64,000 bases of DNA from Actinomycetospora sp. TBRC 11914 (GTDB taxonomy: Bacteria > Actinomycetota > Actinomycetes > Mycobacteriales > Pseudonocardiaceae): contig NZ_JABBND010000020.1 in assembly GCF_012933465.1 (NCBI RefSeq), positions 1-64,000 of the forward strand, read 5' to 3'. Numbering within the stretch: the stretch's first letter is position 1; every line of letters starts with the position of its first letter. Both the position numbers and the translations under genes were made by a program. Shown piece after piece: positions 1,580 through 50,704 of the stretch. Under the pieces are notes generated by a model. That model was not told the DNA's origin. It was given only the letters and a program-made list of their open reading frames with translations, and searched no databases.

Positions 1580-1629
1580 GCCTCGTGAGCACTAACTGTC
1601 GGTATAGCGACAATTAGTGCTCACGAGGC
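1580..1629. repeat. Palindromic repeat copy P1, between convergent genes
   Basis: 50-bp inverted repeat, GCCTCGTGAGCAC at the left and its complement at the right, with an inner arm TGTCGGTATAGCGACA. It separates a + strand gene ending at 1578 from a - strand gene whose TAA stop (1614-1616) lies inside the element. Likely a bidirectional terminator. Confidence 0.85.
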
Positions 1630-3182
1630 CGCAGGCCACCCAGGGCCTGGAACAGCTCCGCCCGGCTCTCCGCCCCGACCCGGCGCCGGATGCGCGAGAC
1701 GTGGTGCTCCACCGTCTTCGCGGACAGGTAGAGCCGGCCCGCGATCTCGCGGTAGGTGAGCCCCTCGAGCACGAGGTCGGCGATGTCGCGCTCCCGCTCG
1801 GTCAGCGCCGCCGCGCCCGCGCGCCGGGCCCGCACCGTGGCGGCCGCGCGCGCCGAGGCCTCGGTCGTCGGGTCGGGGGGCCCAGGGATCGCGGGCGCCT
1901 GGGCGGTGGCGACCGGCGCGACCGGGGTCCGCCCGGCCTGCAGGGTGCGGGCGCACGCGAGCAGGGCGGTGGAGGCGGCCCGGTCGGTCGTGCGGATCGC
2001 GGCCTCGCCGGCCAGCCGCGTCCCGTCCCAGCCGAGCCCGACCGCGCGCAGCCCGGCGGCGGCCTGCGCGACCTCCTCGGCGTCGACCGCCCCGTCGAGC
2101 ACCGCGAGCCACACCCGGGCGGCCCGGGCGGGGGCCGCGGCGCGGTCGTTGAGGACGACGGCGGCCTCCAGCGCCCCGGCGTGCGCCGCGGCGGCCGCGC
2201 GGTCCTCGGCGGTGATCGCCGCGTGCAGGCCCGCCCAGTGCCACGACGTGCTCCACGACGCCGGCCGCCCCAGCGCCTCGAGCAGCACGTCGGCCTCGGC
2301 GAGGTGCGGCTCGACCCAGCGGGTCTCGCCCAGCCGGGCGGCGGCCACGGCGAGCTCGCCCACGGGGAGCAGGCAGTAGAGGTCCACGGGGTGGCGCAGC
2401 AGGGCCTGGCGGGCGCGGGACCACAGGTCGAGCAGCCCACGGGTGTCCCCGGCCCGCCGGGCGAGGGCGACCTCCAGGGCGACCCCGGTGAGCTCGTCGC
2501 GCGGCTCCGGCGCGCCGGGCAGGTCGGCGGCCGCGCCGAGGGCCGTGCGGGCCGCGTCCTCGTCGTCGCGCAGCAGCGCCACCCAGCCCCGCAGCAGCAG
2601 GTGCCGGCGGCGCAGGCCCGGCCCGCCGAGGTCGGTGTCGACGGCGAGGTCCAGCAGCGGGTCGGCGAGCTCCGGCTCGCCGCGGTGCAGGGCCAGCAGG
2701 GCGCCGAGCGCGGCCGGGGAGTCGCCCATCGGGGACCGCTCCACCGCCGACGCCAGCGCCGTCGTCGCGCGGACCAGCAGCGAGAGCGCCGTGCCCGCCG
2801 AGCCCTCGACCGACGCGAGCAGCCCCTGCGCGGTCAGCGTCTCCGCGGTGTCGCGCAGTCCCGGCAGCCCGCCGCCGCACGCAGCGGCCTGCTGGCCCTC
2901 GGCGAGCGCCCCGGACCCCAGCAGCGCGACGGCGGCCCCCGCCGCGGGACGGCCCCGACGCCCGGCGAGCCAGCGATGCACCTCCGCCGCCCGCGCGAGG
3001 AGCCCCCGCTGGGGCAGCACCGCTGCGAGCACCACCGCGCCGGCGTCCTGCTCCCGCGGGTCGTCGGCCTGCAGCGCGGCGTCGGCGCCGCGCAGGGCGG
3101 CGTCCAGGTCGCCGTCCTGGGCGGCACGGGCCGCGGCGGCGGCGTCGGGACCGGGCCCGGGACGGACGGGGTCGGCGGTCAC
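1614..3182 (-). CDS. LuxR-family transcriptional regulator with long helical N-terminus
   Basis: 522 residues. The last 60 or so form a clear LuxR/GerE helix-turn-helix (LTERERDIADLVLEGLTYRE, then LSAKTVEHHVSRI). The first 440 are Ala/Leu/Arg-rich and helical, resembling the TPR-like sensor part of large LuxR (MalT/LAL-like) regulators, but no P-loop is seen. The GTG start overlaps the Hsp70-like stop by 4 bp, so the two genes are co-transcribed and probably work together. The stop and the last residues (REH) come from palindrome P1, so the C-terminal tail has been altered by the repeat. The target is unknown; the divergent iniBAC locus is the obvious candidate. Confidence 0.85.
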   Translation of the reverse strand: MTADPVRPGPGPDAAAAARAAQDGDLDAALRGADAALQADDPREQDAGAVVLAAVLPQRGLLARAAEVHRWLAGRRGRPAAGAAVALLGSGALAEGQQAAACGGGLPGLRDTAETLTAQGLLASVEGSAGTALSLLVRATTALASAVERSPMGDSPAALGALLALHRGEPELADPLLDLAVDTDLGGPGLRRRHLLLRGWVALLRDDEDAARTALGAAADLPGAPEPRDELTGVALEVALARRAGDTRGLLDLWSRARQALLRHPVDLYCLLPVGELAVAAARLGETRWVEPHLAEADVLLEALGRPASWSTSWHWAGLHAAITAEDRAAAAAHAGALEAAVVLNDRAAAPARAARVWLAVLDGAVDAEEVAQAAAGLRAVGLGWDGTRLAGEAAIRTTDRAASTALLACARTLQAGRTPVAPVATAQAPAIPGPPDPTTEASARAAATVRARRAGAAALTERERDIADLVLEGLTYREIAGRLYLSAKTVEHHVSRIRRRVGAESRAELFQALGGLRPREH

Positions 3183-50316: not shown

Positions 50317-50664
50317 ATGCTCCACGACGTGACCGACGAGGACACCGCGATCGCGCTCGGCAGCGGTGACGTGGCCGTGCTGGGCACCCCACGGCTGGTG
50401 GCCTGGCTCGAGGCCGCCACCGTGGCCACCGCGGAACCGCTGCTCGACGAGGGCCGCACCACCGTGGGTACCGCCGTGCGGGTCAAGCACCGCCGGCCCA
50501 CGCTGGTCGGCGGCACCATCGGGTGCACCGCCGAGGTCACCTCCGGGCCCGACGAGAAGGGCCGCATCACCTTCGCCGTCCGCGCCGTCGACGGCGAGGG
50601 TCAGGTGGCGGGGGAGGGCGAGATCGACCGGGTCGTCGTCGACCGAGGTGCCTTCGGCACGTGA
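50317..50664 (+). CDS. Hot-dog thioesterase, FlK (fluoroacetyl-CoA thioesterase)-like
   Basis: 115 residues. VTDEDTAIALGSGDVAVLGT, PRLVAWLEAATVATAEPLLD, TTVGTAVRVKHRRPTLVGG and VDGEGQVAGEGEIDRVVVD follow the single-domain FlK-like fold with its Thr/Glu/His active-site region. Small acyl-CoA esters are likely substrates. It sits alone between palindromes P4 and P5 and takes its stop codon from P5. A role in hydrolysing CoA esters of the adjacent pathway is a guess from position. Confidence 0.83.
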   Translation: MLHDVTDEDTAIALGSGDVAVLGTPRLVAWLEAATVATAEPLLDEGRTTVGTAVRVKHRRPTLVGGTIGCTAEVTSGPDEKGRITFAVRAVDGEGQVAGEGEIDRVVVDRGAFGT

Positions 50665-50704
50665 GCAGAAAGTGTCGGTATACCGACACTTTCTGCTCAC
50701 GAGC
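50659..50704. repeat. Palindromic repeat copy P5, carrying both convergent stop codons
   Basis: GTGAGCAGAAAGTGTCGG and its exact complement around a central TATA. The TGA of the thioesterase gene (50662-50664) and the TGA of the TetR gene (50697-50699, - strand) are both inside the element, in its two outer arms. Confidence 0.88.

What the first reader, a model, noticed from the sequence alone, without database searches (positions are those of the whole stretch)
1580..50704. A family of TA-centred palindromes at convergent gene ends that supplies stop codons
Five complete copies (1580, 28149, 42228, 50248, 50659) and one half copy (1) share GTGAGCA...TGCTCAC arms, a TATA/CATA centre and matching GC-rich flanks (GGTGCCTCCGG / CCGGAGGCACC type). 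Four of the five full copies lie exactly between convergent genes. Stops of luxR, oleD, gamma-carbonic anhydrase, the thioesterase and tetR fall inside the element; P5 holds both convergent stops. Inner arms differ by paired changes (TGTCG/CGACA against TGCCG/CGGCA), which argues for RNA pairing. They look like a REP/MITE-type element adopted as a bidirectional terminator. The LuxR and OleD C-termini share the same REH tail because of it.
Basis: seen in the sequence. Interest (0 to 1): 0.8.

Follow-up and report, generated by a model that had tools for sequence, protein, structure and literature searches.

The report
Stop-codon-abutting 40-bp palindromes in Actinomycetospora
These bacteria carry many copies of a 40-letter mirror-image DNA element at the very ends of genes, where it supplies stop codons and probably halts transcription from both sides; its inner letters differ between species while its length and mirror symmetry are kept.

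Summary
The five palindromes belong to a family with 147 exact-arm copies in this Actinomycetospora genome. It stands clearly above control in 16 of 17 other genus genomes (G011: 2 copies, control 1) and at chance level in 23 outside genomes. The 'half copy' is a contig edge. Of 101 copies examined, 67 are convergent, 28 tandem (26 within 24 nt of the upstream stop), 3 divergent, 3 at contig edges, 0 inside genes. Stops fall at a few fixed places in the element. The family is part of a superfamily of exactly 40-bp GTG...CAC palindromes with several arm types, one also found in a genome of a second genus. At one orthologous junction in nine species the inner arms differ widely, yet 97.5% of pairs are kept. 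In 7 of 8 orthologous pairs an own copy resembles other own copies more than its orthologue. No G.U-over-A.C bias was seen, and no Y1/RAYT gene in 18 genus genomes. Best reading: REPIN-like palindromic repeats without a RAYT, probably used as two-way terminators. Termination, mobility and the homogenising agent are inferred.

The parts
1..21 (.). right half of an element cut by the contig edge
   Evidence: contig C13 starts at window base 1; full element at the orthologous place in A. endophytica
1582..1627 (.). family A element between a PQQ-propeller gene (TGA at +6) and a LuxR-type gene (TAA at -11)
   Evidence: shared with A. endophytica
6805..6844 (.). family B palindrome (GTGCGTG arms, 18 of 18 pairs) between tandem genes
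22231..22270 (.). loosely paired GTGGACC palindrome (type E, 14 of 18 pairs) at a convergent junction; a second inverted arm of the same sort at 22291-22336
28150..28195 (.). family A element between a class II tRNA synthetase gene (glyS-like, TAG at +13) and an OleD-like gene (TAA at -11)
   Evidence: also at this gene's end in A. endophytica and A. chiangmaiensis, not in the six other species nor in G002 and G006
28195..28205 (.). example of a flanking mini-hairpin: GCGC stem, GGA loop; the left flank of the same copy has a shorter one (GCC, TCC, GGC at 28142-28150)
42229..42274 (.). family A element between a hexapeptide-repeat (gamma-carbonic-anhydrase-like) gene (TGA at -4) and a GntR gene (TAG at +24); the junction has no element in the seven other species where it was compared (gaps -4 to 10 bp)
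50248..50293 (.). family A element after a GMC oxidoreductase gene (TAG at +15), before a FlK-type thioesterase gene; orthologous element in eight other species, none in A. lutea or in the MAG of L149
50658..50703 (.). family A element holding the stops of both the thioesterase and the TetR gene (both -4)
   Evidence: shared with A. endophytica, empty in G003, NBRC 106378 and A. chiangmaiensis

Best explanation
A superfamily of short non-coding palindromic repeats of REPIN type in Pseudonocardiaceae. Each copy is an exactly 40-bp GTG...CAC palindrome; family A copies are mostly flanked on each side by a small GC hairpin with a TNC triloop (GNA on the other strand) and AGGTG/CACCT edges. Copies sit at gene 3' ends, above all between convergent genes, and the element's own TAG, TGA or TAA serves as the gene's stop. 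They most likely act as two-way transcription end points, which would explain their near absence from divergent promoter regions. They are copied and homogenised inside each genome by a process other than a known RAYT, so the copies of a species change together while length and symmetry are kept. Shown: family, placement, stops, symmetry between species, concerted change, no Y1 transposase. Inferred: termination, mobility, copying machinery.
For: 147 exact-arm copies, control 0; 202 with up to 2 arm mismatches, control 15. Context of 101 of the 147: 67 convergent, 28 tandem, 3 divergent, 3 contig edges, 0 inside genes. 95 of 101 have a stop within 24 nt of the core; 63 of 67 convergent copies have both stops so near; 20 are exactly 15/15; 11 of 13 tandem copies in gaps of 120 bp or more hug the upstream stop. 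Stops at elements: TAG 103, TGA 48, TAA 13 of 164; in the 661-kb sample TAG 109 of 583. Length: 46 palindromes at 40 bp against 1, 3, 2, 1, 0, 0, 0 at 34, 36, 38, 42, 44, 46, 48 bp (17 at 32 bp, a looser test) in 661 kb; 0 at 40 bp in 199 kb of four other genera. Flanks: 173 of 199 have a perfect local stem of 4 or more, 25% of composition-shuffled flanks; left and right stems equal in 17 of 73 against 20.4 shuffled. Nine-species orthologue: 97.5% of 162 cells paired, covariation 0.593 against 0.155 shuffled. Inner identity own-own 20.6 of 26, own-endophytica 15.6; in 7 of 8 orthologous pairs the own copy is less like its orthologue than like other own copies. G021, another genus: 45 copies of the GTGCGTG type; the 15 fetched are 7 convergent, 8 tandem, 0 divergent.
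Against: No RNA data: termination is unproved. RNA minimum-energy folds show no local mini-hairpin on either side in 97 of 98 copies. Of the 8 orthologue pairs one goes the other way (L088b), one is a near tie (glyS, 21 against 21.1), and W41|W42 keeps a trace of ancestry (19 against a mean of 16.1 to all endophytica copies). Nearest neighbours are mostly not, or only about half, same-species in G003 (13.3 of 26), G016 (7.9 of 20) and G014 (11.2 of 20), which share subfamilies. Stems of 4 or more were found in only 16 of 30 flanks in G021 and 10 of 22 flanks of own types B and C. No 40-bp palindrome in 60 kb of the genus member G009 and one in 40 kb of G011. No clean insertion with target duplication was seen; at the own-only junction both gene ends look replaced.
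Confidence: 0.6

Rival explanations
1. A dyad protein-binding site (nucleoid or chromosome-organising protein, or another DNA-binding enzyme) between genes; half-sites follow one species-specific consensus and the hairpin itself has no role.
For: Fixed 40-bp length across species; in the main own family the two arms are almost independent draws from one pool of half-sites; no G.U bias.
Against: Half-sites without a partner are practically absent in the own stretches searched (147 with a partner, 5 without, one of these a mutated full copy); placement is tied to stop codons; flanking mini-hairpins; arms match better than all shuffles in six species.
Confidence: 0.15
2. Purely selfish MITE/REP-type repeats without use to the cell; copies survive only where insertion does least harm, in the last codons or between convergent genes.
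For: Gene-end placement and scarcity in divergent regions; lineage-specific bursts with many identical copies in G006 and G021.
Against: Copies hug the upstream stop even in wide tandem gaps (11 of 13); one junction keeps an element in nine species; the same gene end can hold different palindrome families in different species.
Confidence: 0.2
3. Ordinary host terminators that arose in place and look alike by chance or composition.
For: Position between convergent genes.
Against: Shared sequence among copies, exact length, 0.01 expected in the window, genome-wide control 0.
Confidence: 0.02

Closest known systems
REP / REPIN repeats with RAYT (Y1) transposases (PMC3116915: abstract and outline; PMC3733652 and PMC12306157: passages found by search terms)
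   Same: Short palindromic or inverted units forming hairpins, high copy number, intergenic, mainly between unidirectional and convergent genes (PMC3733652), some close to stop codons (PMC12306157: 446 of 4,072 E. coli REPs within 15 nt), lineage-specific classes
   Different: No Y1 transposase in 18 genus genomes or in G021; no conserved GTAG or CGTC tag; a fixed 40-bp palindromic core with species-specific inner arms; most stops at the copies are supplied by the element
CGTC-tagged REPs (PMC3733652: passages)
   Same: REPs said there to lack a dedicated transposase, so absence of a RAYT is not in itself new
   Different: No CGTC tag here; 40-bp core; stop codons in the element
Inverted DNA-uptake-sequence pairs acting as terminators (recalled; PMC1852404 seen in a listing only)
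   Same: Repeated palindromes at convergent gene ends
   Different: Uptake sequences are recalled to be common as single copies too; half-sites without partner are practically absent here
I-shaped terminators without U-tract in mycobacteria (recalled; PMC5335608 and PMC12288462 seen in a listing only)
   Same: Strong hairpin right after the stop without a T-run
   Different: A copied repeat family with fixed length
MITEs of TA-duplicating transposons (recalled)
   Same: Palindromic; TAGGTG...CACCTA edges look like TA-flanked ends
   Different: No partner element with these ends seen, no clean TA duplication against an empty site

Membership tests
REP/REPIN with RAYT | High-copy extragenic palindromes forming hairpins as inverted units | tested here: met
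REP/REPIN with RAYT | Genome-encoded Y1 (PF01797) RAYT transposase | tested here: not met
   0 of 18 genus genomes and 0 in G021; the same search rings in 5 of 14 control genomes. A strongly diverged enzyme could be missed
REP/REPIN with RAYT | Conserved GTAG (or CGTC) tag at one end | tested here: not met
   the edge consensus is AGGTG and the bases before it vary
MITE of a DDE transposon | Target-site duplication against an empty site | tested here: inconclusive
   polymorphic junctions show TA at some edges but with further changes or deletions
MITE of a DDE transposon | Autonomous relative with the same terminal repeats | tested here: inconclusive
   no unpaired half-site flanking a gene in 0.72 Mb of own stretches, overlaps included; the rest of the genome was not examined for this
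Canonical intrinsic terminator | GC hairpin followed by a T-run | tested here: not met
   none of the 3 hits in window 40000-52000 is at one of the three copies there; other copies not scanned
Bidirectional terminator (functional class) | RNA 3' ends on both strands at the element | not testable with these tools
   no transcript data
Inverted uptake-sequence pairs | Abundant single copies as well as pairs | tested here: not met
   (own stretches only)

The most novel reading that the evidence does not exclude
An unknown enzyme recognises shape more than sequence: a 40-bp palindrome flanked by triloop mini-hairpins. It brings such palindromes to gene stop codons and keeps rewriting the inner arms of old copies, so that each species drives its whole set towards a new palindrome while terminator slots stay filled. 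The several arm types in one genome would be parallel specificities.
Probability: 0.3. Interest if true: 0.82.

Novelty: new variant of a known kind. Interest (0 to 1): 0.6.

Why it matters
It would be a REPIN-like repeat system in actinobacteria with unusually clear evidence of concerted turnover: orthologous copies in nine species keep position, length and symmetry while most inner base pairs change. That makes two open questions testable: how short repeats are kept alike across a bacterial chromosome, and how repeats become terminators and rewrite gene ends (TAG 103 of 164 stops at elements against 109 of 583 in the sample). Lack of a RAYT alone is not new (CGTC REPs, PMC3733652).

Tried and rejected
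Rfam scan of the window: only a tRNA. RAYT partner: none. Autonomous element by half-sites without partner: none seen. One long stem that includes the flanks: not favoured on evolutionary grounds, since left and right flank stems are independent, although minimum-energy folding prefers folds without local mini-hairpins. RNA-level selection by G.U bias: no support. TA target duplication: suggested by the TAGGTG/CACCTA edges, but no clean empty site showed it. Literature: eight searches listed no description of these repeats in Actinomycetospora or Pseudonocardia; for (Actinomycetospora + genome + palindrom) the three papers were judged unrelated from titles and starts of abstracts only. The library lacks most subscription journals. 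A search of plasmid records with G021 DNA, meant to name that genome, did not name it.

Limits of the counts. The 101 copies are those found in the stretches I had fetched, picked from the listings plus window and sampled stretches; they are not a random draw from 147, and one search scored only 150 candidate rows. In one search the C9 and C2 stretches (like C14) were chosen because they hold elements, so occupancy there is biased upward. Window plus ten regularly placed C1 stretches gave convergent 6 of 44, tandem 1 of 148, divergent 0 of 44; 4 of these 6 are in the window itself, leaving 2 of 37 convergent junctions in the C1 stretches. In one search the samples were copies from the head of the listings (30 endophytica, 26 G003, 20 G016, 20 G014, 14 G017) against 100 own, which favours own nearest neighbours. 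The minor CTTTC subfamily is under-represented among the 101 (3 copies). Junction comparison with A. endophytica covers 178 conserved junctions only.

Full report
What is there. The five window copies are GTGAGCA-N26-TGCTCAC palindromes. The own genome has 147 with gap 20-30 (control 0); 17 other genomes of the genus have 2 to 184, of which only G011 (2, control 1) is near chance; 23 genomes outside the genus have 0 to 3 with controls 0 to 1. Length is nearly fixed: with the gap set to 26, 183 of 184 endophytica, 119 of 125 G003, 67 of 69 G016 and 52 of 60 G001 copies remain.

Placement. Of 101 own copies examined, 67 are between convergent genes, 28 between tandem genes, 3 divergent, 3 at contig edges, none inside a gene; of 49 copies from other species 19 are convergent, 29 tandem, 1 divergent, none inside. 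In 661 kb of own sequence 18 of 108 convergent, 5 of 371 tandem and 3 of 107 divergent junctions hold one (stretches partly chosen for holding copies); in the less biased part 6 of 44, 1 of 148 and 0 of 44. Of the 28 tandem copies 26 lie within 24 nt of the upstream stop, including 11 of the 13 in gaps of 120 bp or more.

Stop codons. The distance from gene stop to core takes a few values: +15 in 76 of 164 own gene ends (all TAG, in TAGGTG), -4 in 38 (TGA of GTGAGCA), -11 in 12 (TAA), -23 in 8, and +6, +13, +18 and -33 in 4 each. TAG makes up 103 of 164 stops at elements and 109 of 583 in the sample. So 'supplies stop codons' holds genome-wide. Whether this comes from insertion at stops or from later trimming of gene ends is not settled: at the own-only junction 42235|42296 both gene ends look replaced relative to A. 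endophytica, where the two stops overlap (CTAG).

Architecture. Reading inward, a typical family A flank is AGGTG, a short GC stem, a three-base loop, the matching stem, then CTC and the core. 173 of 199 flanks have a perfect stem of four or more, 25% of shuffled ones; the loop is TCC, TTC, TGC or TAC in 151, and stems vary (GCGC, GGCC, GGGC/GCCC, GCGAC/GTCGC). Left and right stems are independent (list), so the flanks look like separate small hairpins rather than an extension of the central stem. Against this, 97 of 98 RNA minimum-energy folds contain no local mini-hairpin (same call).

Symmetry and its level. At the junction after the GMC oxidoreductase gene nine species have an element of 40 bp: 97.5% of 162 cells are paired, 10 of 18 pairs have changes on both sides, covariation is 0.593 against 0.155 shuffled and at most 0.110 when slid. 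Two of the nine have variant outer arms (GTGAGCG, GTGAGTG). Within the own main family the arms are nearly independent draws, although in each of six species arms match better than all 1000 shuffles. In copies read from one strand, G.U and A.C mismatches are equally common, 11:9 and 10:12, which speaks for symmetry at DNA level; numbers are small.

Concerted change. Mean inner identity is 20.6 of 26 within own, 19.6 within endophytica and 15.6 between them. In 7 of 8 orthologous own/endophytica pairs the own copy is less like its orthologue than like other own copies; glyS (21 against 21.1) is a near tie and L088b, a minor-subfamily copy, is the exception. Other species are less uniform: G003, G016 and G014 share subfamilies. 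So subfamily turnover and conversion are both possible.

Superfamily. A scan for any GTG...CAC palindrome found 46 at exactly 40 bp in 661 kb and 29 in 432 kb of A. endophytica, against 3 or fewer at 34, 36, 38 and 42 to 48 bp; the 32-bp class (17 and 12) uses a looser threshold. Arm types besides GTGAGCA are GTGCGTG, GTGAACG and a loosely paired GTGGAC type; none at 40 bp in 199 kb of four other genera. GTGCGTG palindromes occur in 12 of 18 genus genomes, 8 of them with 8 or more, and 45 times in G021, another genus of the family; GTGAACG palindromes in own (45), G015 (26), G013 (7) and once in G024. The 15 fetched G021 copies lie at gene ends (7 convergent, 8 tandem), and 16 of 30 flanks have a stem of four or more, mostly with TCC, TTC or TGAC loops. 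Own types B and C are convergent or tandem (2 and 4; 3 and 5); in endophytica type B is 1 convergent, 5 tandem, 1 divergent, 1 edge.

Gene-end slots. The same gene end can hold different palindromes in different species: the glyS-like gene (by eye), the junction 22219|22354, and own C9 110066, where endophytica has a GTGCGTG palindrome instead of the GTGAGCA copy. Among 178 conserved own/endophytica junctions, convergent ones are 4 shared, 2 own-only, 17 neither; tandem 1 shared, 2 endophytica-only, 127 neither; divergent 1 counted own-only (endophytica has a one-letter variant there) and 24 neither. The slots are the main reason for preferring a 3'-end role over pure selfishness.

Mobiliser. 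PF01797 (Y1) was not found in own, in the 17 other genus genomes or in G021. The copying agent is unknown.

Known relatives. REPINs (PMC3116915, abstract and outline) and GTAG/CGTC REPs (PMC3733652, passages) are closest in kind. [quoted passage not shown] PMC12306157 (passages) reports REPs within 15 nt of stops in E. coli and cites work that these stall ribosomes. The stability of GNA triloops in DNA, I-shaped terminators and uptake-sequence terminators are recalled, not read here.

Verdict. A real repeat system and a new variant of the REP/REPIN kind; terminator function and copying mechanism are inferred.

Noticed in passing
window 6752-6844: An ordinary GC hairpin (6752-6791) followed 13 bp later by a GTGCGTG-type 40-bp palindrome, between tandem genes.
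   Followed up: partly
window 22228-22336: Two GAGTGGAC...GTCCACTC-type palindromes in a convergent gap; the same kind recurs at other own junctions (L096 1933 and 1996; C9 near 110950).
   Followed up: partly
window 55114-55279: Repeats with 52-bp spacing, three copies, in a 727-bp convergent gap.
   Followed up: no
window 28182-32780: A four-gene cluster (OleD-like end) lies between the glyS-like gene and its neighbour in seven other stretches; A. endophytica has the cluster there with extra genes.
   Followed up: partly
G000 C1:15907/15988, C1:893884/893967, C6:147128/147208, C34:261367/261450: GTGAACG palindromes occur as close pairs about 80 bp apart in four places.
   Followed up: no
G000 contig ends C13:1, C11:3-68, C4:201962-202027, C2:217033-217095: Several contigs of the own assembly begin or end in or right at an element, so the palindromes may break the assembly.
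   Followed up: no
A. endophytica orthologue of window 22219|22354 (loci L127-L129): A family A element without inner arms, leaving both flanks and TAG/CTA edges.
   Followed up: no
window 39853-39964 and 41200-41354: Short coding repeats (15-bp and 51-bp spacing) in two genes.
   Followed up: no
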